Part shown: positions 30,434 through 45,237 of the stretch, in pieces | Position numbering within the stretch: the stretch's first letter is position 1 | Layout: each line of letters begins with the position of its first letter | Assembly (NCBI RefSeq): GCF_005502435.1 | Contig: NZ_SCOU01000003.1 | Span: 62,001 to 126,000, forward strand | Direction: 5' to 3' | DNA length: 64,000 bases | Source: Methylobacillus flagellatus | GTDB lineage: Bacteria; Pseudomonadota; Gammaproteobacteria; Burkholderiales; Methylophilaceae | The notes under the pieces: model-generated | Seen by the model: the letters and a program-made list of their open reading frames with translations, nothing else | Told to the model about the DNA's origin: nothing | Database searches by the model: none | Made by a program: the position numbers and the translations under genes

Positions 30434-31000
30434 ATGAGTTCTTTGATCAACACCCAAGTGGCCCCTTTTAGCGCCAATGCCTTCCACAACGGCAAGTTCA
30501 TCACCGTGAGCGACGCAGACCTGCGTGGCAAGTGGTCTGTGGTGATCTTCATGCCAGCCGCGTTCACCTTCAACTGCCCTACCGAAGTTGAAGATGCGGC
30601 TGACAACTATGCCGAATTCCAGAAGGCTGGTGCCGAAGTGTACATCGTCACCACCGATACCCAGTTCTCGCACAAGGTCTGGCACGAAACCTCCCCAGCC
30701 GTGGGCAAGGCCAAGTTCCCGCTGGTCGGCGACCCGACCCATCAGCTGACCCGTGCTTTCCATGTGCACATTGAAGAAGAAGGCCTGGCACTGCGCGGCA
30801 CCTTCATCATCAATCCGGATGGCGTGATCAAGACCGCAGAAATCCACGACAACGCCATCGCGCGTGACGTGCACGAAACCCTGCGCAAGCTGAAGGCTGC
30901 GCAATATGTGGCCAACAACCCAGGTCAAGTGTGCCCAGCCAAGTGGAAGGAAGGCGAAAAGACGCTGACCCCATCCCTGGATCTGGTCGGCAAGATCTAA
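30434..31000 (+). CDS. ahpC: Alkyl hydroperoxide reductase subunit C (2-Cys peroxiredoxin)
   Basis: AhpC reduces H2O2, organic peroxides and peroxynitrite. The 188-residue protein has the peroxidatic site AAFTFNCPTEVED with Cys48 and the resolving site GQVCPAKWKEG near residue 168. The C-terminus KTLTPSLDLVGKI matches the AhpC subfamily. The usual PADFTFVCP reads PAAFTFNCP here, a mild departure. An ACGGAG ribosome site precedes the ATG at 30434. ahpF follows after 264 bp with a hairpin between, so levels of the two can differ. Confidence 0.96.
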   Translation: MSSLINTQVAPFSANAFHNGKFITVSDADLRGKWSVVIFMPAAFTFNCPTEVEDAADNYAEFQKAGAEVYIVTTDTQFSHKVWHETSPAVGKAKFPLVGDPTHQLTRAFHVHIEEEGLALRGTFIINPDGVIKTAEIHDNAIARDVHETLRKLKAAQYVANNPGQVCPAKWKEGEKTLTPSLDLVGKI

Positions 31001-31049
31001 GGCGGCTGATGCCTGTCTGATGAAAGACAGTAGCGATATGTAGTCACAA

Positions 31050-31074
31050 GACGCCCCTGCTGCGGCAGGGCGTC
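31050..31074 (+). terminator. Hairpin between ahpC and ahpF
   Basis: GACGCCCCTGC pairs with GCAGGGCGTC around TGCG, with one bulged C. It lies 50 bp after ahpC. No T tract follows, so it is more likely a partial terminator or transcript stabiliser than a full stop. Confidence 0.5.
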
Positions 31075-31151
31075 GAGTACAGGGCATAGGCGTATCAGCC
31101 CGTGTCCTGCCCTCGACGCGATCCCCCTGTGAATTTTTTGAACATCGGCCT

Positions 31152-31247
31152 GCACCCAGGGTGCAAGGCGCAGGGTGTTTGCACGCTGAATTTATGCTTT
31201 AACAGTTGCTTGAAACGCTTGCTTGAAACACTAGGGTGCTTGCACCC
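31152..31247. promoter_or_regulatory. Cluster of palindromes and direct repeats upstream of ahpF
   Basis: GCACCC-A-GGGTGC occurs at 31152-31164 and the reversed arrangement GGGTGC-TT-GCACCC at 31234-31247. Between them AGGGTGTTTGCACGC repeats the second motif with two changes, and a 13-bp tandem TTGCTTGAAACGC/TTGCTTGAAACAC occupies 31206-31231. The cluster ends 17 bp before the ahpF ATG. It may bind a regulator of ahpF separately from ahpC. Confidence 0.5.
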
Positions 31248-31264
31248 AGTCATTGGAGAACACC

Positions 31265-32803
31265 ATGCTCGACGATACCCTCAAGACCCAGTTGCAGACT
31301 TATTTAGGCATGCTGCGCCAGCCGATCCGCCTGATCGCTTCGTTGGATAACAGCGCCAATGCCACCGAAATGCGCGGCCTGCTGGAGCAGATCGCCAGCC
31401 TGTCCGACAAGGTCAGCTTTGATGCCAGCGGTGAGGATGCGCGCAAGCCATCGTTCGTGATCGCCCGCGAAGGCGAGACCGAGGGCGTGCGCTTTGCCGC
31501 CATCCCCATGGGACATGAATTCACTTCGCTGGTGCTGGCCTTGCTGTGGACCGGCGGCCATCCGCCCAAGGTGGAGGCCGAGGTGATCGAGCAGATCAAG
31601 GCGCTGGACGGCGATTTCAGCTTCGAGGTGTACATGAGCCTGTCCTGCCATAACTGCCCGGACGTGGTGCAGGCCACGGCCTTGATGGCCATCCTCAATC
31701 CCAAGGTGAAGACCACCGTCATCGACGGTGCGCTGTTCCAGGACGAGGTCAACGGCCGCAACATCATGGCCGTGCCGACCACTTACCTGAACGGCGAGCC
31801 ATTCGGTTCCGGTCGCATGACGGTGGAAGAGTTCCTCGCCAAGCTGGACACCGGTGCGGTGGCACGTGAAGCCGCCAAGCTGGACAAGAAAGCGCCATTC
31901 GACGTGCTCATCGTCGGTGGTGGCCCGGCGGGCGCATCGGCGGCGATCTATGCGGCCCGTAAAGGCATACGCACCGGCATCGTGGCCGAGCGTTTTGGTG
32001 GACAGGTGATGGACACGCTAGGCATCGAGAACTTCGTCTCGGTCAAGGAAACCGAAGGTCCCAAGCTGGTGGCCGCGCTGGAAGAACACGTGCGCAGTTA
32101 CGAGGTGGACATCATCAACCTGCAGCGTGCGGAATCGCTCAAGCGTGACGAACTGATCGAGATCAAGCTGGAAAGCGGCGCCACCCTCAAGAGCAAGACG
32201 GTGATCATCGCCACCGGTGCACGCTGGAAAGAACTCAACGTGCCGGGTGAGCGCGAGTACCGCGGCAAGGGCGTTGCCTACTGCCCGCACTGCGACGGCC
32301 CCTTGTTCAAGGGCAAGAGCGTGGCCGTGATCGGCGGTGGCAACTCCGGCGTGGAAGCTGCCATCGACCTGGCCGGTATCGTCGGCCACGTCACCCTGAT
32401 CGAGTACGACACCAAGTTGCGTGCGGATGCCGTGCTTCAGAACAAGCTGTTCAGCCTGCCCAACGTGACCGTGGTGATCAACGCGCAGACCACCGAGGTG
32501 ACCGGTGCAGACAAGGTCAACGGCCTGATCTACAAGGATCGCGCCACTGGCCTCGATCACAAGCTGGAGCTGGAAGGCGTGTTCGTGCAGATCGGCTTGC
32601 TGCCCAACACCGACTGGCTCAAGGGTACGGTGGAGCTCAGCAAGTTCGGCGAGATCAAGGTCGACTCACATGGCCAGACCTCGCTGCCCGGCGTGTTCGC
32701 CGCCGGTGACGTGACCACGGTGCCCTACAAGCAGATCATCATCGCCATGGGTGAAGGCTCCAAGGCTTCGCTGGGCGCGTTCGATTATCTGATCCGTCAG
32801 TAA
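31265..32803 (+). CDS. ahpF: Alkyl hydroperoxide reductase subunit F
   Basis: AhpF is the NADH-dependent flavoprotein disulfide reductase that regenerates AhpC. The 512-residue protein has an N-terminal double thioredoxin-fold domain with LSCHNCPDV (Cys128/Cys131). It also has the FAD motif [17 protein letters not shown] near residue 215, the redox-active CPHCDGPLF (Cys340/Cys343), the NAD motif [17 protein letters not shown] and the terminal [18 protein letters not shown] 31265 follows GGAG; a TTG four codons upstream is less likely. A bidirectional terminator follows at 32852-32880. Confidence 0.97.
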
Positions 32804-32923: not shown

Positions 32924-34258
32924 TCAGCCGCTTGCCTGAGCGGCGGTATCGAATACCATCTCCACGAGCAGCCCGCCTTCGGCGCGGTTGCTTAGCAGGA
33001 TGCGTCCGTGGTGGCGCAGCACGGCACGTTTGGCGATGGCGAGGCCCAGCCCAAAGCCACCCCCCTGACTCGTGCTGGCGCGGTAGAAGGGTTCAAACAC
33101 GGCCTCCAGCTCGCTTTCGGCCAGCCCCGGTCCGTGGTCGCGCACGGTGACATGCACCCCGCTTTCATCCTGATACAGGCGCACCAGTACCGTCTGCCCG
33201 GCCGGGTTGTATTTGAGTGCATTGCGGATCACGTTCTCGAACGCGCGGTGCAGCAGCTCGTAGCTGCCCGGCATGTAGACATCGCGCGTGGCTTGCAGCA
33301 CCACTTCGCTGCCTACTGCCTGCGCTTCGAAATTGACGTCATGCACGATGTCGGCCAGCAGTTCGTTGAGGCAGATGCGCTCGTTGGAATCTGCCAGCAA
33401 ACCGGCATCCAGTCTGGCCAGTGTGAGGATCTGGCCCAGCAGGTCGTCCAGGCGCTCGGTTTCGCGTTCGATGCGTTCCAGCGCCGTGGCGAGTTTTTCC
33501 GGTTGCTGCTGGGCGAGGCCAGCCGCCAGCCGCATGCGCGCTACTGGCGAGCGCAGCTCATGCGAGACATCATGCAGCAGCTGTTTCTGCGAATCGACCA
33601 GGGTCTGCAGACGCGTGGCCATGAAGTCGAAGTCACGCCCCAGGTCTGCCAGCTCGTCGTTCCGTCTGCCCATATTGTCGCTGACGCGGGCATTGAGGTC
33701 GCCGTCGGCCAGTTTGCGGCTGGCATGTTGCAGATGCCGGATAGGCCGTGTCATGTAGCCTGCGAACAGGGCACTGAAGATCAGGCTGGCGATGAAGGCG
33801 ATCAGCATCTGCATCTCGGGTGGTGGCAGCCTGTTCTTGAGCGGGCCGCCCGGACGTTTGTGATGCGCCGGGACGAACACGATGTATTCCGCACCGCTCA
33901 CGTCCTGCGTTTTGCGCAGGCTGGGTGAAGGCTGGCTGGTGGCCAGCGATACGCGTGCCTGCTGCAGCGCCTTGGGCGGCACCGGTCTATGATAGATATC
34001 CACCCCTTGCGCGTTGACCACCAGCACGTCGATCGGCCGCGCGCTGGGCCATTGCCGGAACTGTGCATCCAGCGCGGCTTTGCCGCCGAACTGGATCGCG
34101 TTGGCGGCCATGGTGACCAAAAATTCAGAGCGCCGGTCGGTGGAGAACTCCTCGTCCGAGTTGACGCGCTCGAAATAGACCGCGATGCCCACGGCCGCAC
34201 CCGTGATCACCAGCGTCAACCAGAAGCCGATGAACATCTTCCAGAACAGTCTGCCCAT
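32924..34258 (-). CDS. cpxA: CpxA-like sensor histidine kinase
   Basis: A 444-residue inner-membrane kinase. A first membrane helix lies near residues 7-28, followed by a periplasmic sensor of roughly 120 residues and a second helix near residues 149-170. HAMP follows (TRPIRHLQHASRKLADGDLNARV), then the dimerisation box LLHDVSHELRSPVARM with phospho-acceptor His233. The ATPase N, G1 and G2 boxes are NVIRNALKYNP, DHGPGLAESELEAVFEPFYR and GGFGLGLAIAKRAV. The layout is that of CpxA/EnvZ. It follows its response regulator by 2 bp. CpxR-type boxes upstream of the pair and a Spy/CpxP-like gene nearby support the Cpx assignment. Confidence 0.85.
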   Translation of the reverse strand: MGRLFWKMFIGFWLTLVITGAAVGIAVYFERVNSDEEFSTDRRSEFLVTMAANAIQFGGKAALDAQFRQWPSARPIDVLVVNAQGVDIYHRPVPPKALQQARVSLATSQPSPSLRKTQDVSGAEYIVFVPAHHKRPGGPLKNRLPPPEMQMLIAFIASLIFSALFAGYMTRPIRHLQHASRKLADGDLNARVSDNMGRRNDELADLGRDFDFMATRLQTLVDSQKQLLHDVSHELRSPVARMRLAAGLAQQQPEKLATALERIERETERLDDLLGQILTLARLDAGLLADSNERICLNELLADIVHDVNFEAQAVGSEVVLQATRDVYMPGSYELLHRAFENVIRNALKYNPAGQTVLVRLYQDESGVHVTVRDHGPGLAESELEAVFEPFYRASTSQGGGFGLGLAIAKRAVLRHHGRILLSNRAEGGLLVEMVFDTAAQASG

Positions 34259-34260
34259 GC

Positions 34261-34947
34261 TTATTCTCCCGGGATGAGCTGGTAACCCACCCCGCGCACG
34301 GTCTGGATGGGCGAACGGCCGTCGTCCAGCAAGCCCAGTTTGGCGCGCAGATTGCTGATGTGCACATCGATGCTGCGGTCATAGCGGCTCTCGGCGCGGC
34401 CCAGAGCCTGTTCGAACAGGTCTGCCTTGCTGACCACGCGGCCTGCATTGCGGATCAGCACTTCCAGCAGGCTGTATTCGCTGCTGGTGATGTCCAGTGC
34501 CTGACCGCGCCATTCGATCATGCGTTCTGCCGGGTGGATGATGATGTTGCCGACCAGCAGTGTCTCGCCTGCAGGCTGGTTGCGCTGACCGGTGCGGCGC
34601 TGGATGGCACGCAGACGGGCCACCAGTTCACGTGGGTTGAAGGGCTTGGCCAGATAGTCATCTGCGCCCAGTTCCAGACCGATGATGCGGTCGATCTCGT
34701 CACCTTTGGCGGTGAGCATGATGACCGGGATCTGGCTGCTGGCACGGATCAGACGCAGGGTGTCGAAGCCGTTGATGCGAGGCATCATCACGTCCAGGAT
34801 CACCAGGTCAGCCTGACCTGCCAGCGCCAGTTTGGCGCCCTCTTGCCCATCGTGCACGGTCTGTATGCCGATGTCTTCGGCAGACAAGTATTCGCGCACC
34901 ATCTGACATAGTTCGATGTCGTCATCGATCATCAACACATTTAGCAA
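34261..34947 (-). CDS. cpxR: CpxR-like response regulator
   Basis: A 228-residue OmpR/PhoB-family regulator. The receiver domain has the acidic pocket MIDDDIELC, phospho-acceptor Asp52 in LVILDVMMPRING and MLTAKGDEIDR. The C-terminal winged helix includes SSEYSLLEVLIRNAGRVVSKADL, RSIDVHISNLRAKLG and IQTVRGVGYQL. I use TTG 34947, because AAAGGAG lies six bases upstream and the product then starts MLNVLMIDDD; the frame is open to 35001 without support. Three GTAAA motifs in 10-bp phase lie about 90-110 bp upstream, suggesting autoregulation and control of the divergent periplasmic-protein/efflux genes. Confidence 0.88.
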   Translation of the reverse strand: MLNVLMIDDDIELCQMVREYLSAEDIGIQTVHDGQEGAKLALAGQADLVILDVMMPRINGFDTLRLIRASSQIPVIMLTAKGDEIDRIIGLELGADDYLAKPFNPRELVARLRAIQRRTGQRNQPAGETLLVGNIIIHPAERMIEWRGQALDITSSEYSLLEVLIRNAGRVVSKADLFEQALGRAESRYDRSIDVHISNLRAKLGLLDDGRSPIQTVRGVGYQLIPGE

Positions 34948-35033: not shown

Positions 35034-35058
35034 TTTACATACTTTTACCTAGTTTTAC
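35034..35058 (-). promoter_or_regulatory. Three phased GTAAA motifs (CpxR-box array)
   Basis: On the minus strand GTAAA occurs three times with exactly 5 bp between copies; on the plus strand TTTAC is at 35034-35038, 35044-35048 and 35054-35058. GTAAA-N5-GTAAA is the established CpxR consensus. The array lies midway between the divergent cpxR-like start (34947) and the His-rich protein start (35163). Confidence 0.85.
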
Positions 35059-35162: not shown

Positions 35163-35606
35163 ATGAAGATTAGCAAGCTTATCGCTTCAAGTCTGACCGC
35201 CGTCGGTCTGGTGCTCGCGATCTCTGGCCCGGCTTATGCCGACCGTGACGACCGCGGTCATCGTGGTGGTCATGGCTACGAGAATCATAGACAGCAGCAT
35301 CGTGGTGGTGACCGTGGTCGCGATGACCGTCGTCACGATTACCGTGGCAACGACCATCGCCGTCATGACTACAGTCGCCATGACTATGGCCGTCACGATC
35401 ACTACCGTGGCAACTACTATTCCACTGGCCATCATTATGGTGGCCGCGGCGCACCGCACTACACCTATCGCCATGATCTGCCACGCCGCCATGGTGGTTA
35501 CTGGCACCACGGCTGGCATGCCGGTCGTAACGGCAGCTGGTGGATCGTGGGCAACAACTGGCAGTTCTACGCACCTCCGGTTTCCATCATCTACCGGGCT
35601 TACTAA
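35163..35606 (+). CDS. Secreted histidine/arginine-rich protein
   Basis: A 147-residue protein with a clear signal peptide (MKISKLIASSLTAVGLVLAI to AYA near residue 26). The mature part has 18 histidines and many Arg, Asp and Tyr residues in a loose repeat (RRHDY, SRHDY, GRHDH). It ends in an aromatic-rich segment, SWWIVGNNWQFYAPP. The composition suggests metal or acidic-polymer binding in the periplasm or at the envelope; this is inference. I do not recognise a family. GAGGAG precedes the ATG. It is the first gene rightward of the CpxR boxes and 48 bp before the Spy/CpxP-like gene. Confidence 0.8.
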   Translation: MKISKLIASSLTAVGLVLAISGPAYADRDDRGHRGGHGYENHRQQHRGGDRGRDDRRHDYRGNDHRRHDYSRHDYGRHDHYRGNYYSTGHHYGGRGAPHYTYRHDLPRRHGGYWHHGWHAGRNGSWWIVGNNWQFYAPPVSIIYRAY

Positions 35607-35654: not shown

Positions 35655-36164
35655 ATGCAATCCAATCGTAAACATCTCATGCTGGCAGGCGTTTTCGCTG
35701 CCGTTCTATCCACCCTGAGCATCAGCAGCTTTGCCGGTTCAGGTGAAAAGTGTCACGGTCCGGCGCGTGGCGAACACGCTAGCCACCGAGGCCATGGCCC
35801 GGACGGCAAGGGGCCACAGGGCGCGTTCTGGCAGCACAAGATGGACAAGCTGAAGATGACGCCTGAGCAACAGGCGCAGGCCAAGCAGATCTTCGAAAAG
35901 CAGCGCGCCGCACAGGAAAAGAACCGTGAGGCCATGCGCGAGACACAGCAGGCTTTGTATGCAGCTTCGCGTACCAAGGATTTTGACCGTAGTCGTGTCG
36001 AACAGCTTGCTAACGACCAGGCCAAGCTGCGTGCCCAGATGACGGTTGCCCGTGCCGAGGCCATGCATCAGTTCTTTGCCGTGCTGACCGAAGAGCAGAA
36101 GCAGCAGATGCAACAGTGGCGTGAAAAGCGCAAACCGGCAGACAAGGCGCCTACGGCTAGCTGA
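35655..36164 (+). CDS. Spy/CpxP-family periplasmic protein
   Basis: A 169-residue protein with signal peptide (HLMLAGVFAAVLSTLSISSF, then A). The mature part is helical and contains LKMTPEQQAQAKQIFEKQRA near residue 71 and FFAVLTEEQKQQMQQWREKR near residue 138, the two LTxxQ-type motifs of the Spy/CpxP family. Members act as ATP-independent chaperones or as feedback inhibitors of CpxA. The start at 35655 has AAAGGA upstream; the frame is open 42 bases further. A terminator follows at 36214-36249. Confidence 0.88.
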   Translation: MQSNRKHLMLAGVFAAVLSTLSISSFAGSGEKCHGPARGEHASHRGHGPDGKGPQGAFWQHKMDKLKMTPEQQAQAKQIFEKQRAAQEKNREAMRETQQALYAASRTKDFDRSRVEQLANDQAKLRAQMTVARAEAMHQFFAVLTEEQKQQMQQWREKRKPADKAPTAS

Positions 36165-36213: not shown

Positions 36214-36249
36214 CTTCAGGTAATGTATCGCATTACCTGAAGCCTTTTT
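36214..36249 (+). terminator. Terminator after the Spy/CpxP-like gene
   Basis: CTTCAGGTAATG pairs perfectly with CATTACCTGAAG around TATCG and is followed by a T run. Being a 12-bp palindrome before mdtA, it could also serve as an operator, but the T run favours termination. Confidence 0.75.
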
Positions 36250-36289: not shown

Positions 36290-37600
36290 ATGACGGCCAG
36301 TCCCGCCCCTCGTTCCTCTTCCTTTATCCGTAGTGTGCTGCCATGGTTGTTTGTGTTGGCGCTGCTGGCAGCGGCCGCCTGGTGGTTCTGGCCAGTGGCG
36401 TCTGATGATCAGGCCGCTGACCAGGCTGCACAGCAGGCCGCAGCGGACAAACCGGGGCCGCCTGGCAAGCCAGGCAAATTCGGTAAAAAGGGCGGCCGTG
36501 GTGGCGACCAGATGTCCACCGTGGGCGTGGCAGAAGTGAAGCAGCAGGACATCCCCCAATACCTGAACGCCATCGGCACCGTCACGCCGATCAGCAATGT
36601 CATCGTCAAGCCGCGCGTGGACGGCCAGCTGATCCGTGTGCTGTTCAAGGAAGGCCAATATGTGAACAAGGGCGATTTGCTGGCCGAGATCGATGCGCGT
36701 CCCTATCAGGTGCAATTGACGCAGGCGGAAGGCCAGATGGCGCGTGACCGCGCCTTGCTCAAGAACGCCGAACTGGATCTGCAGCGCTATCAGACTCTGC
36801 TGGCGCAGGACTCGCTGGCCAAGCAACAGCTGGATACGCAAGAGTCGCTGGTGCGCCAGTATCAGGGGGCCATCCAGACCGACCAGGGCGTGATCGACAA
36901 CGCCAAACTGCAGCTCAGTTTCACGCGCATCACCGCGCCAGTGAGCGGTCGCATCGGCTTGCGTCTGGTGGATGCCGGCAATATGGTGAGCAGTGCGGAT
37001 GCCACCGGCCTGCTCACTATCGCGCAGATCAAGCCCATCAATGTGGTGTTCTCGCTGCCGCAGGACGATCTGCCTGCGGTGCTGGGCCCACTGCGCAAAG
37101 GTGAGCGACTGCCGGTCAGTGCCTACGCACGTGACCAGAAGACCCTGCTGGCCGAAGGCGTGCTGAGCAGCCTGGATAACCAGGTCGATACCACCACCGG
37201 CACCGTCAAACTCAAAGGCGAATTCAGCAATGCAGACGAAGCCTTGTTCCCCAGCCAGTTCGTCAATGTGCGACTGCTCACCTCCACGCTGAAGCAAGTA
37301 CTGACCGTGCCCAACAACGCCGTGCTGCGTGGTGCACAGGGCGACTATGTGTACGTGGTCAAGGCTGACCGTACCGTGACCGTGAAGCCGGTGCAGGTGT
37401 TGACCATAGAAGGTGACATCACCGCAGTCCGTGCTGAATTGCAGCCTGGCCAGCAGGTGGTCACCGACGGCGCTGACAAACTGCGTGAAGGTGCAGAAGT
37501 GGCGCTGGCCAAGCCTGTGGTGTTATCCGACAAGACGGACAAGCCAAGAGGTAGGCGTGCTGATGCCTCGTCTGCCAAACCAGCCCGCGCTGCGCCATGA
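36290..37600 (+). CDS. mdtA: RND efflux periplasmic adaptor MdtA
   Basis: A 436-residue membrane fusion protein linking the RND pump to the outer-membrane channel. An N-terminal membrane helix ([20 protein letters not shown], residues 13-32) is followed by a lysine/glycine-rich linker. The barrel-sandwich hybrid starts at [22 protein letters not shown], with an alpha-helical hairpin ([20 protein letters not shown]) and a beta barrel with [16 protein letters not shown]-type sequence. The C-terminus is basic. Its last four bases overlap mdtB. Order and motifs fit MdtABC rather than AcrAB. Confidence 0.92.
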
Positions 37601-40600
37601 ACCCGTCACGCATCTTCATCCTGAGGCCGATCGCGACCTCACTGCTGATGCTGGCGATCCTCATCGTCGGCCTGCTTGCCTACCGCCTGCTGCCCTTGTC
37701 CGCCCTGCCCGAGGTGGATTACCCCACCATCCAGGTGGTGACGCTGTATCCGGGCGCCAGTCCGGAGGTCACGGCGGCCTCCATCACTGGCCCGCTGGAG
37801 CGGCAGTTCGGGCAGATGCCGGGGCTGGTGCAGATGTCGTCCAGCAGCTCGGGTGGTGCTTCGGTGATCACCCTGCAGTTCAGCTTGGAACGCACGCTGG
37901 ATTCAGCGCAGCAGGAAGTACAGGCGGCCATCAATGCCGCCACCAGCCTGCTGCCGCAGGACTTGCCCACGCCGCCCATCTACAGCAAGGTGAATCCGGC
38001 GGATACACCCATCATCACGCTGGCCATCACCTCGGACACCCTGCCGCTGCCCAGCTTGCAGGACCTGACCGATACACGTCTGGCGCAGAAGATCTCGCAA
38101 TTGTCCGGGGTGGGCCTGGTGTCGCTGAGTGGCGGTCAGCGCCCCGCGGTGCGCATTCAGGTGGACCCTGGCGCACTGGCCGCGCAAGGCCTCAATATCG
38201 ATGATGTGCGCACCGCCGTCACTAGCGGCAATGTGAATCAGGCCAAGGGCAGTTTCGACGGCCCGTCACGGGCGTCCACCATCGACGCCAATGACCAGCT
38301 GCGCAGCCCGGAAGATTACCGTAAGTTAGTGCTTGCTTACCGCAACGGTGCGGCAGTCAAGCTGGGCGATGTGGCCACACTGGTGGACGGCGCCGAGAAC
38401 AGCAAGCTGGCCGCCTGGGCCAATGGCAAACCAGCCATCCTGCTCAATGTGCAACGCCAGCCTGGCGCCAATGTGATCAAGGTGGTGGACAGCATCCGTG
38501 CCCTGCTGCCGGAGTTGCAGGCCAATCTGCCCGCCGACATGCGCGTGGAGGTGTTGAGTGACCGCACCGTCAACATACGCGCCGCCCTGCACGATGTGCA
38601 GTTCGAGCTGGTGCTGGCGGTGACGCTGGTGGTGCTGGTGATCTTCCTGTTCCTGCGCAACCTGCGCGCCACCATCATCCCGGCGGTGGCCGTGCCGCTG
38701 TCGCTGGTCGGCACCTTTGCCGTGATGTATGTGGCGGGTTTCAGCATCAACAACCTGACCCTGATGGCCTTGACCATCGCCGCCGGTTTTGTGGTGGATG
38801 ACGCCATCGTCATGATAGAGAACATCGCGCGCTATCTGGAGCGCGGCGAAAGCGCCATGCAGGCCGCGCTCAAAGGCGCCAGCCAGATCGGCTTCACCAT
38901 CATCTCGCTGACGCTGTCGCTGATCGCCGTGCTCATCCCCTTGCTGTTCATGGGCGATGTGGTCGGCCGCCTGTTCCGCGAGTTCGCCATCACGCTGGCG
39001 GTGGCCATCCTGATCTCGGCCGTGGTCTCACTTACGCTGACGCCTATGATGTGCGCGCGCTTGTTGCGGCATATCCCGGAGCAGGAGCGCAGCCGCTTCG
39101 ATGTGGTGGTCGGCAAGGGCTTCGACCGGCTGGCCGCCGCCTATGGACGTGCGCTGCAATGGGTGCTGGCGCGTCAGCCCATGGTGGTGGTGGTGGCAGT
39201 GGCGACGCTGGCACTCACCGTAGCGCTGTATGTGATGATTCCCAAGGGCTTCTTCCCGGTGCAGGACACCGGCTTGCTGCAAGGCATCACTGAAGCGCCG
39301 CAAACGGTTTCCTTCACCGCCATGGCCGAGCGTCAGCAACGCCTGGCCGAGGTGATGGGGGATGACCCGGACGTGGCCAGCGTCACCTCCTTTATCGGCG
39401 TGGACGGCATCAACGCCACACTGAATAGTGGTCGCTTGCTCATCAACCTGAAGCCGCATGCAGAGCGGGATGCCTCGGCGGATACCATCCTGGCGCGTCT
39501 GCAGCAGCGTGCCGCAGAAGTGACCGGCATCCATGTCTATCTGCAGCCGGTGCAGGACCTCACCATCGAGGACAAGGTCAGCCGCAACCAGTACCAATAC
39601 ACGCTGAGCAATCCGGACCAGCAGCAGCTCAACATCTGGGTACCGCGCTTGCAGCAGGCACTGGCCGGGTTGCCGCAGATCGCCGAAGTCAGCAGTGACT
39701 TGCAGCAGAAAGGCCTGCAGGCCTATGTGGATATCGACAGACAGGCGGCGGGACGCCTGGGCATCAGCGTGGCGGACATCAACAATGCGCTGTACAGCGC
39801 CTATGGCCAGCGCATGATCTCCACTATCTTCACGCAGTCCAACCAATACCGCGTGATCCTGGAAGTACGTCCTGACTTGCAGCAAAGTCCGCAGGCGCTG
39901 TCCAACCTTTACCTCACCACCGCAGAAGGTGCGCAAGTGCCGTTGACGGCGGTGGCCAGCGTGCGCGAGCAGCAAGCCGCGCTGCTGGTGAGCCGGCTGG
40001 GCCAGTTCCCGGTGAGCACGCTGTCGTTCAATCTGGCAGAAGGCTATTCACTGGGGGATGCGGTGCAGGCCATCGAGCAGGCACAGGCCGAACTTGGCCT
40101 GCCGGACAGCATGCAGACCAGTTTCCAGGGCGCTGCCCAGGCGTTCCGGGCTGCGTTGGGCAATCAGCTGTGGCTGATCCTGGCGGCCATCATCACTGTC
40201 TACATCCTGCTGGGCGTTTTGTACGAAAGCTTCATCCATCCGGTGACCATCCTGTCCACGCTGCCCAGTGCCGGGGTGGGGGCCTTGCTGGCCCTGATGC
40301 TGAGCGGCAGCGACCTCGGTGTGGTGGCCATCATCGGCATCATCCTGCTGATCGGTATCGTCAAGAAGAACGCCATCATGATGATCGACTTTGCGCTGGA
40401 CGCGCAGCGTAACGAAGGCAAATCCCCCGAGGAGGCCATCTACCAGGCCTGTCTGCTGCGCTTGCGCCCTATCCTGATGACCACCATGGCGGCCATGCTG
40501 GGTGCGCTACCGCTGGTGATCGCGGGCGGTGTGGGCTCGGAGCTGCGTCAGCCGCTGGGTATCGCGCTGGTGGGTGGTTTGTTGCTGAGTCAGGTGCTAA

Positions 40601-40683
40601 CACTGTTCACCACCCCGGTGATCTATTTGGCCTTTGACCGCACGGCACAGCGCCTGCGGCAGTGGACTGCCAGGGCGGCCTGA
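37597..40683 (+). CDS. mdtB: RND multidrug transporter MdtB
   Basis: A 1028-residue inner-membrane proton/drug antiporter of the HAE1 family with 12 membrane helices and two large periplasmic loops. Landmarks are [19 protein letters not shown] at the N-terminus, [20 protein letters not shown], the helix 4 proton-relay sequence [19 protein letters not shown] with paired Asp, and the repeat-two [18 protein letters not shown]. In E. coli MdtB and MdtC form a heterotrimer. The ATG overlaps mdtA and the stop is 1 bp before mdtC, so translation is coupled. Confidence 0.93.
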
Positions 40684-40684
40684 T

Positions 40685-43600
40685 ATGTCCATGATGGCAT
40701 TATTCGTGCGGCGGCCGGTGGCCACCACCTTGTTGACGCTGGGTATCGTGCTGGCCGGTTTTGTGGGTTTGCGTCAGTTGCCGGTAGCCCCTTTGCCGCA
40801 AGTGGAGTACCCGAACATCTCGGTGAGTGCCAGCTTGCCTGGCGCCAGCCCGGAGATCATGGCCAGCAGCGTGGCCACGCCGCTGGAGCGCGCGCTGGGG
40901 CGTATCGCCGGGGTCACCGAGATCACTTCCAGCAGCTCGCTGGGCTCGGTGCGTATCAATCTGGAATTCGATCTGGACCGTGACATCGACGGGGCCGCAC
41001 GCGATGTGCAGGCGGCCATCAACGCGGCACGCAGCACCCTGCCCACCGGCCTGCCGTCCAACCCCACCTACCGCAAGGTGAACCCGGCTTCTGCGCCCAT
41101 CATGATCCTGGCGCTGACCTCGGACACCATGCGGCGCGGCGAGCTGTATGACTACGCCTCCACCATCCTGGCGCAGAAGATCGCGCAGGTGCGCGGCATC
41201 GGTGAAGTCAGCGTGGGCGGCAGCTCCCTGCCGGCGGTGCGTGTGGATATAGACCCGCGTGCGCTCAACAAGTACGACCTGGACCTGGACGAGGTGCGTA
41301 ACTCCATCGCCAGCAACAACGTCAACCGTCCCAAGGGCGCACTGGCGGGCAGCGAGCAGCAATGGCAGATCGCCGCTAACGACCAGCTGGATAGTGCCGA
41401 GGATTTCCTGCCCATGATCATCCGCTACCGCAATGCGGCGGCGGTGCGTCTGGGAGACGTGGCCGAGGTCACGGATTCGGTGCAGGACCTGCGCAACGCG
41501 GGCCTGTCCGACGGCAAACCGGCCGTGCTGCTCATGGTGCGTGCACAGCCGGGTGGCAACATCATCGAGGCGGTGGACCGCGTCAAGGAGCTGATGCCTG
41601 TGCTGCGTGCCAGTGTGCCGGCCGCCATCGACATCGCCCTGGTTCAGGACCGCACCGTGGGCATACGCGCGTCCATCTATGTGGTGACGCATACCCTGTT
41701 CATCGCCATCGCGCTGGTGATCCTGGTGGTGTTCATCTTTTTGCGTGACTGGCGCGCCACCATGATCCCCGCCATCGCCGTGCCGGTGTCGCTGATCGGC
41801 ACCTTTGCCGCCATGTACCTGTGCGGTTACAGCCTGAACACCTTGTCGCTGATGGCGCTCACCATCGCCACCGGTTTTGTGGTGGACGATGCCATCGTGG
41901 TGGTGGAGAACGTCACGCGCCAGCTGGAGGCCGGCGCCAGCCGCATGCAGGCGGCCTTGCAGGGCGCGCGCGAGGTGAGTTTCACCGTGCTGGCGATGAG
42001 TCTGTCGCTGGTGGCGGTGTTCATCCCCATTCTGTTCATGGGCGGCATCGTCGGGCGTTTCTTCCGCGAATTCGCGGTGACGCTGTCGGTGGCCATTCTG
42101 GTGTCGCTGGTGGTGTCGCTGACGCTGGTGCCCATGCTGTGCGCGCGCTGGCTGCGCGACAAGCCGGTGCAGCCGGGACGGGTCAGTCTGGCGTTCGAGC
42201 GTGCGTTCACGCGTATGCAGAACGGCTATGCACGCAGCCTGCACTGGGCCTTGCGTTTTCGCGCCCTGATGCTGGTGCTGTTGCTGGCCACCATCAGCCT
42301 CAATGTGTATTTGTATGTGGTCATCCCCAAGGGCTTCTTCCCGCAACAGGATATCGGCCGTATCGCCGGTTCCATCCAAGCTGACCAGCAGATCTCGTTC
42401 CAGTCCATGCAGGACAAGCTCACCCATTTTATGGACATCGTGCGCCGTGACCCGGCGGTGGAAAGTGTGGTCGGCTTCACCGGCGGTGGTCGCCGCAACA
42501 GTGGTGTGATGTTCCTGGCCCTGAAGCCGGTGGCGCAGCGTGATGTGAGCACCGACGAAGTCATCAACCGCCTGCGTGAACAGCTCAAGGGTGAGCCGGG
42601 TGCCCAGTTGTTCCTGCAATCGGTGCAGGACATCCGTATCGGTGGGCGTCAGGGCAATGCGCAATACCAGTACACCCTGCAAAGTGACAACCTCAAGGAC
42701 CTGCGTGACTGGGCGCCGCAGATCCGCAAGGCGCTGAGTCAGCTGCCCGAGCTGCAGGATGTGAATACCGACGAGGAAGATCGCGGCCTGCAAACCTCGC
42801 TGGTGATAGACCGCGACACGGCCGCCCGGCTGGGCATCAGCATGGCGCAGATCAACAGCGCGCTCAATAACGCCTTCGGCCAGCGCCTGGTGTCCGTGAT
42901 CTATAACCCGCTCAACCAGTACCGCGTGGTGATGGAGCTGGCGCCCGAGTTCAGTGCCGATGCGCGCGCCCTGCAATATATCTATGTGCGTGCCGCCGAT
43001 GGTACCCAGGTGCCGCTGTCCTCCTTCAGTCGCTACGAACTGACGCGCACCGCACTGGAGGTGAACCATCAGGCCCAGTTCGCGGCCACCACGGTGACTT
43101 TCAACCTCACCGATGGCATCTCGCTGGGGGAAGCCACCGAGCTGATACGCGACACCTTTGTGAGTATCGGTGTGCCGCCTTCGGTACAGGGCGCATTCGC
43201 GGGCACGGCCAAGGTGTTCCAGCAGTCGCTCAAGAGTCAGCCCTGGCTGATCCTGGCGACCTTGCTGGCCGTGTATATCGTGCTGGGCATCCTGTATGAG
43301 AGCCTGTTGCACCCGCTGACCATCCTGTCCACCTTGCCCAGTGCCGGGGTCGGCGCGCTGCTGGCCTTGCTGGCCATGGGGCAGGATCTGAACCTGATCG
43401 GCATCATAGGCGTGATCCTGCTGATCGGCATCGTCAAGAAAAACGCCATCATGATGATCGACTTTGCACTGATGGCGGAACGTGAGCAGGGTTTGTCCGC
43501 GCAGGATGCCATTTTCAAGGCCTGCCAGATGCGCCTGCGCCCTATCCTGATGACCACCATGGCCGCCCTGCTGGGTGCAGTGCCGCTGGCGGTGGGGATA

Positions 43601-43786
43601 GGCGAAGGTGCCGAGCTGCGCCAGCCGCTGGGTATCGCCATCGTTGGCGGCCTGATGGTGAGTCAGTTGCTTACTTTGTATACCACGCCTGTGGTGTACC
43701 TCTATATGGACGCGGCACGGCGCCGCTGTTGGAAGCGCGGCAGCGCAAGCCAGCCGCGATTGGCGACAACACTGGGACAAGGATGA
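40685..43786 (+). CDS. mdtC: RND multidrug transporter MdtC
   Basis: A 1033-residue HAE1-family pump protein paralogous to MdtB. It begins [19 protein letters not shown] and keeps the same landmarks: [19 protein letters not shown] in helix 4 and [18 protein letters not shown] in helix 10. ATG 40685 is 1 base after the mdtB stop; an in-frame upstream start inside mdtB is rejected. The stop overlaps a possible start of the channel gene (ATGA). Two different RND subunits in one operon mark a hetero-oligomeric pump. Confidence 0.93.
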
Positions 43787-43794
43787 GACACACG

Positions 43795-45237
43795 ATGAAA
43801 ACACCGATCTGGCTATTGCTGTTCAGCCTGGCAGGCTGCACGGTAGGCCCGGATTACGTCAAACCCGAGGTGGAGACCCCGGCGGCGTTCAAGCAGGCCG
43901 ACGGTACGCAATGGAAGCAGGCCGAACCGCAGGATCATGTGCAGCGCGGCCCCTGGTGGCAGGTGTTCAATGATGAACTGTTGAACCAACTGGTGCCGCA
44001 AGTGGAAGTGTCCAACCAGACCTTGCGCGCCGCACTGGCGCGTTACCAACAGGCGGTCGCCGGTACACGTGCCGCACGTGCCGACCTGTTCCCCACCATA
44101 GGCAGTACGCTGTCACGTACCCGCAGCCAGTCTTCGCAGCTGGGTAACCGCACCTTCAACGGTAACCGGCTCAACACCAACAACACCTTGTCGGCCAACC
44201 TGAGCTGGGAGGCGGATATCTGGGGCCGCATCAGCCGCACCGTGGAAGCCAACCGTGCCGGTACCGACGCCAGTGCCAGCGATGTATCCGCCGCCCTGCT
44301 GAGTGCCCAGGCCGAGCTGGTGCAGAACTACTTTGCGCTGCGGCTGGCGGACAGTCAGCGTCTGGTGCTGGAAGACAGCATCGCCACCTATGAAAAATCC
44401 CTGCAGCAGACGCGTAACCGCTATGCAGCGGGCGTGGCCAGCAAGGCCGATGTGGTGCAGGCCGAAACGCAGCTCAATGCCACACGCGCCCAGGCGCTGG
44501 ATACCGGCATCCTGCGCGCCCAGCTAGAGAACGCCATCGCCGTGCTGACTGGTAAACCGCCGTCCAGCCTGAGCATTCCCGTGACCAGGCTCACCGAACA
44601 GTTACCGCTGGTGCCTGTGGGCCTGCCCTCGCAACTGCTGGAACGCCGCCCGGACGTGGCTGCGGCGGAGCGGCGCGTCGCGGCCGCCAACGCGCAGATC
44701 GGCGTGGCCAAGGCGGCCTTCTTCCCTACCGTCAATCTGTCGGTGAATGGTGGCTTCCAGAGCACCAGTTCGGCTAACCTGATCGATATCGCCAACCGCT
44801 TCTGGTCGGTCGGGCCTGCGCTGGCGTTAACCCTGTTCGATGCGGGCCGACGTCGTGCCTTGAGCGATCAGGCGATCGCCGCCTATGACGAGCAAGTGGC
44901 CAACTACCGCCAGACCACGCTGACTGCGTTCCAGGAGGTGGAAGACAACCTGGCGGCCTTGAATGTGTTGCAGCAGGAGATCGTATTGCAGACGCAAGCC
45001 CTGCAGGCAGCGCGGCAATCGCTGGAGATCAGCACTAACCAGTATCAGGCCGGGCTGATCAGCTACCTCGATGTGGTGACGGTGGCGAACATCGCCCTCA
45101 ACAACGAACGCACCCTGCTGACGCTGCGCGGGCAACAGTTCGCCGCGACGGTACAGCTGATGCGCGCACTGGGCGGCGGTTGGGAGCCGGGCACGGCCTT
45201 GCCGCACATGCAGGAAAGCGCGCGCCAAAAAGAATAA
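43795..45237 (+). CDS. OprM/NodT-family outer-membrane efflux lipoprotein
   Basis: A 480-residue TolC-like channel that completes the MdtABC pump. The signal peptide MKTPIWLLLFSLAGC gives a lipobox with Cys15, and the mature protein opens TVGPDYVKPEVETPAAF, typical of the family. Two repeats of long coiled coils follow (ANRAGTDASASDVSAALLSA; QVANYRQTTLTAFQEVEDNL). An ATG at 43783, overlapping the mdtC stop, is an alternative that adds four residues. A bidirectional terminator overlaps its stop codon. Confidence 0.92.
   Translation: MKTPIWLLLFSLAGCTVGPDYVKPEVETPAAFKQADGTQWKQAEPQDHVQRGPWWQVFNDELLNQLVPQVEVSNQTLRAALARYQQAVAGTRAARADLFPTIGSTLSRTRSQSSQLGNRTFNGNRLNTNNTLSANLSWEADIWGRISRTVEANRAGTDASASDVSAALLSAQAELVQNYFALRLADSQRLVLEDSIATYEKSLQQTRNRYAAGVASKADVVQAETQLNATRAQALDTGILRAQLENAIAVLTGKPPSSLSIPVTRLTEQLPLVPVGLPSQLLERRPDVAAAERRVAAANAQIGVAKAAFFPTVNLSVNGGFQSTSSANLIDIANRFWSVGPALALTLFDAGRRRALSDQAIAAYDEQVANYRQTTLTAFQEVEDNLAALNVLQQEIVLQTQALQAARQSLEISTNQYQAGLISYLDVVTVANIALNNERTLLTLRGQQFAATVQLMRALGGGWEPGTALPHMQESARQKE

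What the first reader, a model, noticed from the sequence alone, without database searches (positions are those of the whole stretch)
35163..35606. Unrecognised His/Arg-rich secreted protein first in line behind the CpxR boxes
A signal peptide, 18 histidines in about 120 mature residues, RHDY-type repeats and an aromatic tail do not match a family I can name. Its place before a Spy/CpxP homologue suggests a metal- or polyanion-binding envelope-stress protein.
Basis: partly seen in the sequence, partly recalled or inferred. Interest (0 to 1): 0.5.

Follow-up and report, generated by a model that had tools for sequence, protein, structure and literature searches.

The report
Secreted Cpx-stress protein, unnamed family
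This gene makes a small secreted, histidine- and arginine-rich protein that sits behind the switch of a bacterial envelope-stress system, and it proves to be an odd, shortened member of a widespread protein family that has no name in the family libraries.

Summary
Window 35163-35606 (+) encodes 147 aa: an apparent signal peptide, 18 His in 121 predicted mature residues, three RHDY and one RHDH, and an aromatic C-terminus. It matches no Pfam, NCBIfam, PHROGs or PDB entry. It is not an orphan: residues 103-140 are the core (WxGGxWxHGxHxGRxGWWW..G..W.FY..PV) of an uncurated proteobacterial family, of which 53 loci were collected. Nearly all members end in a WYYC..YYPYV..C..GW module that the window protein lacks, and no complete member outside its genus is nearly as His-rich, so the His/Arg stretch is a genus-specific extension.

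The Cpx link is strong here. Two overlapping exact CpxR boxes (GTAAA-N5-GTAAA) lie at 35034-35058; the 2.38-Mb genome has three. The gene lies between them and a Spy/LTXXQ gene, divergent from cpxRA. A homologue in another Methylophilaceae genus has the same place and boxes, and a few family genes elsewhere also sit beside cpxRA.

Best reading: a CpxR-induced envelope protein made with Spy, docking through the aromatic core and binding polyanions or metal through the disordered His/Arg stretch. The regulation is well supported by sequence; the biochemical action is inferred. The organism is a close relative of Pseudomethylobacillus aquaticus.

The parts
32924..34258 (-). cpxA-like sensor histidine kinase
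   Evidence: HAMP, HisKA, HATPase_c; best NCBIfam models are CpxA models, 277 and 210 bits, below their cut-offs of 800 and 486
34261..34947 (-). cpxR-like response regulator (TTG start taken; the open frame runs to 35001)
   Evidence: Response_reg and Trans_reg_C; best NCBIfam model is CpxR, 217 bits, below its cut-off of 341
35034..35058 (-). Triple GTAAA array at 10-base spacing = two overlapping exact CpxR boxes, in the 215-base cpxR / finding intergenic region
   Evidence: period-10 repeat also seen by TRF
35163..35606 (+). The finding: secreted His/Arg-rich protein, 147 aa
   Evidence: purifying selection against the congener
35163..35240 (+). Apparent signal peptide, residues 1-26 (MKISKL...GPAYA)
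   Evidence: Read from sequence; no signal-peptide program available
35241..35468 (+). His/Arg/Gly/Asp-rich stretch with RHDY repeats, residues 27-102, predicted disordered
   Evidence: pLDDT mostly under 50 for residues 25-107
35469..35582 (+). Conserved aromatic core, residues 103-140
   Evidence: helix plus three strands, block pLDDT 75-84 for residues 111-140
35655..36164 (+). Spy/CpxP-like (LTXXQ) periplasmic protein
   Evidence: LTXXQ 1.3e-13, Metal_resist 1.4e-12, both above gathering scores
36214..36242 (+). Terminator-like hairpin plus T-run after spy
   Evidence: 3 terminator-like sites found in the region, mean 1.0 in shuffles
36290..37600 (+). MdtA/MuxA-type RND adaptor
   Evidence: NCBIfam PRK11556 423.6 bits, above its cut-off of 391
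37597..40683 (+). RND pump, MdtB-like
   Evidence: compared with other genomes; the subfamily name follows from its place after MdtA
40685..43786 (+). Second RND pump, MdtC-like (start read by me inside ORF 40634-43786)
   Evidence: 51% identical to the first pump; subfamily name by position

Best explanation
The gene encodes an exported envelope protein that is switched on by phosphorylated CpxR and made together with the chaperone Spy. Shown by sequence: the reading frame, the conserved core, the paired CpxR boxes, the shared locus with cpxRA and Spy, and membership of an unnamed, widespread family of apparently secreted proteins. Inferred: under envelope stress CpxR binds the triple GTAAA array and drives this gene and spy as one transcript. 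Inferred: the small aromatic core (helix plus three-stranded sheet) docks on an envelope partner such as the outer membrane or peptidoglycan, and the long, disordered, strongly basic His/Arg stretch binds polyanions (such as lipopolysaccharide phosphates) and/or loosely held metal. In this genus the family's two-cysteine tail is gone and the basic stretch has grown.
For: Two exact overlapping boxes, two of three in the genome. All 30 cpxR loci examined in Methylophilaceae have a box of at least 9/10 within 220 bases of cpxR (21 exact; shuffle means 0.82 and 0.035) and 26 of 30 have a Spy-like gene, so the box-spy order is the family's usual one; in 3 of 30 (window, congener, G023) the family gene stands between boxes and spy. 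Of the six exact boxes in 522 kb (window plus 53 loci) all six lie upstream of this family's gene. In the other three cpxR-linked loci (L106, L133, L135) tandem 9/10 boxes lie in the same intergenic region and orientation. CpxR of at least 200 bits in 5 of 53 loci, 0.03 expected; MdtB of at least 330 bits in 10 of 53, 0.32 expected. Terminator-like hairpin after spy, none between. Basic, mostly disordered stretch.
Against: 48 of 53 loci hold no CpxR of that strength, some because the contig ends. Seven loci next to MdtAB-type pumps but not cpxR (L086, L096, L102, L104, L115, L118, L128) have no box of 9/10 in the 300 bases upstream. No sigma-70-like promoter was found. Several of the counted loci are near relatives (L133/L135 147 of 159 residues identical). 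No data on expression, location or binding; the fold is only moderately predicted and matches nothing solved. The polyanion step rests on composition alone.
Confidence: 0.5

Rival explanations
1. Metal sponge: the His-rich stretch chelates copper, zinc or nickel in the periplasm during metal-caused envelope stress.
For: 18 His, RHDY/RHDH repeats; the co-located Spy also matches Pfam Metal_resist and has a His-containing N-terminus.
Against: The His stretch is confined to one genus while the family is broad; no metal exporter or metal regulator is shown at the locus (the adaptor is MdtA/MuxA-type); no cysteines; Arg outnumbers His.
Confidence: 0.2
2. Cpx signalling accessory: the protein touches the CpxA sensor domain or Spy and tunes Cpx activity, as CpxM does in Pseudomonas aeruginosa.
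For: Place at the cpx locus under the boxes; accessory genes at a cpx locus that tune signalling are reported in PMC12802237 (passages).
Against: Most family loci have no cpxRA nearby, so a CpxA-specific role cannot be the family's general role; no shared sequence with CpxM was tested.
Confidence: 0.15
3. Degenerating gene: a family member that lost its tail and its glycine-zipper partner and is drifting, its low-complexity stretch expanding without function.
For: No tail; only a weak partial glycine-zipper match in the genome (E 8e-4 over 43 residues); DNA repeats under the His/Arg stretch.
Against: Low pN/pS against the congener, and signal peptide, core and boxes kept in both species; but the two are 97% identical in this stretch, so the test is short-range.
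Confidence: 0.1

Closest known systems
Unnamed proteobacterial secreted family with WxGGxWxHGxHxGRxGWWW core and WYYC..YYPYV..C..GW..VP tail (no model found in Pfam or NCBIfam)
   Same: Apparent signal peptide and the core (48% identity to the G023 member in the alignment; 57% over 51 residues); same place and boxes in G023
   Different: Lacks the tail with its two cysteines; has a 76-residue His/Arg-rich stretch; followed by spy directly, not by a glycine-zipper gene
Spy/CpxP (LTXXQ) periplasmic proteins
   Same: Small, exported, CpxR-box-linked, same locus
   Different: No LTXXQ match; predicted core is mainly beta, with no long helices beyond the signal peptide
Pseudomonas Cpx accessory proteins CpxM and CpxH (PMC12802237, passages)
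   Same: Lineage-specific extra genes at a cpx locus
   Different: CpxM is described there as a small inner-membrane helical protein and CpxH as histidine-kinase-like; this one is soluble, basic and His-rich. No direct sequence comparison was made
DUF6515 (PF20125) and WXXGXW-type repeat proteins (the latter recalled)
   Same: Short secreted proteins with His-rich leads or W/G/Y motifs; one DUF6515 protein, L055, shares the YYPY tail
   Different: No Pfam match for the window protein at E up to 1; among 41 family members only two weak single matches, neither to these

Membership tests
Unnamed WWW-core secreted family | Conserved aromatic core | tested here: met
   12 core positions invariant in 8 sequences; G112, W114, G121, W126, W127, Y136 invariant in 41
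Unnamed WWW-core secreted family | C-terminal WYYC..YYPYV..C..GW tail | tested here: not met
   Absent in the window and congener; present in 49 of 53 loci by pattern, 50 with the L126 variant read by eye. I therefore call it a tail-less variant of the family
CpxR regulon | CpxR box upstream | tested here: met
   Two overlapping exact boxes; same in congener and G023
CpxR regulon | CpxR-dependent expression | not testable with these tools
   Needs RNA or reporter data
Spy/CpxP (LTXXQ) | LTXXQ domain | tested here: not met
   No Pfam match at E up to 1. An iterated Spy profile did list the window protein and its congener at about 6e-7, but hits under 1e-3 were fed back into that profile, so I take this as low-complexity drift; not tested further
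Metal-binding His-rich periplasmic proteins | His-rich mature sequence | tested here: met
   18 of 121
Metal-binding His-rich periplasmic proteins | Measured metal binding | not testable with these tools
   Only composition seen

The most novel reading that the evidence does not exclude
A widespread, unnamed family of secreted aromatic-core proteins is a recurrent partner of the CpxRA-Spy-MdtABC envelope-stress module in proteobacteria, and in Pseudomethylobacillus it has been remodelled into a tail-less, His/Arg-rich polyanion- or metal-binding stress effector directly under CpxR.
Probability: 0.35. Interest if true: 0.6.

Novelty: new variant of a known kind. Interest (0 to 1): 0.42.

Why it matters
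Cpx is one of the main Gram-negative envelope-stress systems (general knowledge), and its effectors are best known in enterobacteria and Pseudomonas. A secreted family without a Pfam or NCBIfam model that recurs beside cpxRA, Spy or MdtAB-type pumps is a concrete candidate for an uncharted effector, with a defined promoter array that makes CpxR control directly testable.

Tried and rejected
Rejected: 'orphan protein', because the core is shared with loci elsewhere. Rejected: 'His-rich family', because the strong His enrichment is confined to one genus. Rejected: a Spy duplicate (see Membership tests for the iterated-profile match). Set aside as relatives: L004 and L005, which matched outside the core (query residues 7-90 and 26-84); L004 has weak RcnB/CigR-type matches; L005 lies in a 494-residue open frame that does not look like the family.

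Led nowhere: PDB sequence search; Foldseek on both models, nothing at E up to 0.001; plasmid searches (no match; searches hit the tail only, annotated 'hypothetical protein' or nothing); sigma-70 promoter scan (none found); papers holding histidine-rich, CpxR, periplasmic, Spy and operon together (none) and on the motifs (one irrelevant paper); papers naming Pseudomethylobacillus (four, none on Cpx by title or abstract). Not used: VIA-align, the viral structure library, viral contigs, Rfam, PADLOC.

Limits: the 53 loci come from two degenerate peptide patterns, so they are a sample, not a census; many are near relatives (for example L133/L135, L130/L131, L097/L100, L120/L121) and counts are not corrected for kinship. 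The start codons of the 53 proteins were chosen by a rule of mine. Background rates come from 56 genomes of the window's class, G000 included, while the loci come from many groups. In the 30-locus CpxR test 31 matches were found and 30 fetched; the shuffles kept base composition only. The box scan covered 49 of the 53 loci plus the window.

Full report
What was checked. The ORF at 35163-35606 (+) is as described: 147 residues, hydrophobic N-terminus ending in AYA, 18 His among 121 predicted mature residues (R21 G20 H18 Y14 D12; pI 10.0), RHDY at 57, 67 and 72 and RHDH at 77, and an aromatic C-terminus. Two overlapping rows of short DNA repeats underlie the His/Arg stretch. The copy in the congener differs by 8 synonymous and 2 non-synonymous codons, pN/pS about 0.07, which fits purifying selection, although only ten codons changed. 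Overlapping ORFs in other frames look like by-products of the low-complexity sequence.

Organism. The window lies in a 2.38-Mb genome. The same-genus genome G001 carries the gene on a 547,229-base contig; one search lists a contig of that length holding the same protein as Pseudomethylobacillus aquaticus H-5 (NZ_RJVP01000002.1). The window is therefore from a close relative in Methylophilaceae; the two 3.4-kb stretches are 97% identical.

Curated families. No match in Pfam or NCBIfam at E up to 1, PHROGs or PDB sequences. Of 41 family members scanned against Pfam, two single-member matches appeared (best E 0.0039 and 0.082), which I take as chance.

The family. A homologue in G023 (a Methylophilaceae MAG) matches the window protein over the C-terminal core (57% over 51 residues). 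Aligning it with relatives from five other genomes of the taxonomic family shows a core of about 40 residues in which G112, W114, G117, G121, R122, W126, W127, G130, W133, Y136, P139 and V140 are invariant in 8 sequences; in 41 sequences G112, W114, G121, W126, W127 and Y136 stay invariant. A scan of genome contigs found 53 loci in Methylophilaceae, Gallionella, Rhodocyclales, Chromobacterium, Burkholderia, Trinickia, Thiobacillus, Rhodospirillales and others. A scan of 369 class genomes found the core in 9, the window's own among them (at most 17 candidates scored per genome, so a lower bound). Nearly all members carry a second conserved module, WYYC..YYPYV..C..GW..VP: 49 of 53 by pattern, 50 counting the L126 variant by eye; it is missing in L117 (P. 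aquaticus) and L123, and L116 is cut by its contig end. The window protein lacks it too. Conversely the His/Arg stretch is a mark of the window genus: His is 14.6% of the mature part in L117, 14.0% in the 43-residue L116 fragment, at most 7.9% in the rest, median 5.1%.

The locus. cpxA-cpxR run leftward, and the finding and spy run rightward from a shared 215-base intergenic region. It holds GTAAA three times at 10-base spacing on the minus strand, that is two overlapping exact CpxR boxes at 35034-35048 and 35044-35058. They are the only exact matches in the window (shuffle mean 0) and two of three in the whole genome. In the window plus the 53 loci (522 kb) there are six exact matches, and all six lie upstream of this family's gene in the window, P. 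aquaticus and G023/L084. Spy is an LTXXQ protein. A terminator-like hairpin follows spy at 36214-36242 and none was listed on the + strand before it, which suggests that the finding and spy form one transcript, with the MdtA-type adaptor (above its NCBIfam cut-off) starting after it. Two RND pump genes follow, then an outer-membrane-factor-like gene at about 43783-45237 that I name from recall.

Comparison within Methylophilaceae. Thirty cpxR loci (of 31 matches at E up to 1e-75 in 187 genomes) were examined. All 30 have a box of at least 9 of 10 letters within 220 bases upstream of cpxR and 21 an exact one (shuffles: means 0.82 and 0.035, maxima 4 and 1); 26 of 30 have a Spy-like gene. The four without are G023 (its contig ends inside a partial spy whose LTXXQ score, 23.6 bits, is just under the cut-off of 24.3), L144, L157 and L165. 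In three of 30 (window, congener, G023) the family gene stands between boxes and spy. The CpxR tree puts window genus and G023 in one 12-row clade (100/100) but not as sisters: the window genus splits from the other ten, whose joint fork is only moderately supported (89/82; midpoint root). So either the gene was ancestral to that clade and was lost in most, or it was gained twice.

Beyond Methylophilaceae. Thiobacillus L106 has mdtB-mdtA-cpxA-cpxR on one side and family gene, glycine-zipper gene and YYPY gene on the other; L133 and L135 have cpxA-cpxR, then LTXXQ gene, family gene and glycine-zipper gene. In all three the region next to cpxR holds tandem 9/10 boxes in the same orientation. L086 and L132 have the family gene directly before mdtA-mdtB, L096 and L104 have mdtB-mdtA nearby on the other strand. 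Against a general CpxR link: seven loci near Mdt-type pumps without cpxR (L086, L096, L102, L104, L115, L118, L128) show no 9/10 box in the 300 bases upstream (L132 has too little upstream sequence to test).

Enrichment. Of 53 loci (458 kb), 5 hold a CpxR of at least 200 bits (L084, L106, L117, L133, L135; 0.03 expected) and 10 an MdtB of at least 330 bits (0.32 expected) (rates from 9 and 102 hits in 56 genomes, 146.8 Mb, G000 included). The CpxR count includes the window genus and the near relatives L133/L135, so about four independent cases remain. A glycine-zipper gene lies nearby in 27 loci at E up to 1e-4, 25 at 60 bits or more. The other 48 loci lack a CpxR of that strength, some because contigs end, so Cpx linkage is recurrent, not general.

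Structure. AlphaFold2 gives residues 25-107 mostly under pLDDT 50 and a core of one helix and three strands (blocks 111-140 at 75-84; overall 57, pTM 0.27). The full-length relative L084 shows the same core plus three short strands in the tail (mean 70.2, pTM 0.35). Neither has a PDB match at E up to 0.001.

Literature. PMC12802237 (passages seen) states that cpxP divergent from cpxAR is the order in most cpx loci, uses GTAAA-(N)4-8-GTAAA as the CpxR consensus, lists such sites before cpxP and muxA in P. aeruginosa, and reports that extra genes at a cpx locus (cpxM, cpxH) can tune signalling. Searches aimed at this kind of protein found nothing on it; the listings showed no title or abstract on it (listings only). 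The library holds open-licence PMC papers only.

Verdict. Shown by sequence: the frame, the conserved core, the boxes and the locus. Inferred: CpxR control in the cell, co-transcription with spy, and envelope docking by the core with polyanion or metal binding by the His/Arg stretch.

Noticed in passing
L067 3841-5368; L071; L074; L106 5322-6337; L135 5374-6330: A recurrent trio of a YYPY-tail protein, a glycine-zipper lipoprotein-like gene and the WWW-core gene, in varying order; glycine-zipper gene near 27 of 53 loci. Looks like a conserved uncharacterised envelope module.
   Followed up: partly
L144, right of cpxR (G202): Where other Methylophilaceae have spy, only a 75-residue frame that begins like spy is seen after the CpxR box; it may be a broken spy.
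   Followed up: no
L168 around 1501-1515 (G000:C1:389480-389494): The only other exact CpxR box in the genome, just after a 308-residue frame resembling a glutamyl-Q tRNA(Asp) synthetase (name recalled). Target gene not identified.
   Followed up: no
window 30434-32803: An AhpC-type peroxiredoxin (AhpC-TSA) and an AhpF-like gene (name recalled) lie just beyond cpxA, also in P. aquaticus.
   Followed up: no
L055 987-1610: A protein with DUF6515 (PF20125, E 2.4e-16) also carries the YYPY-type tail, so the tail is a mobile module shared between secreted families.
   Followed up: no
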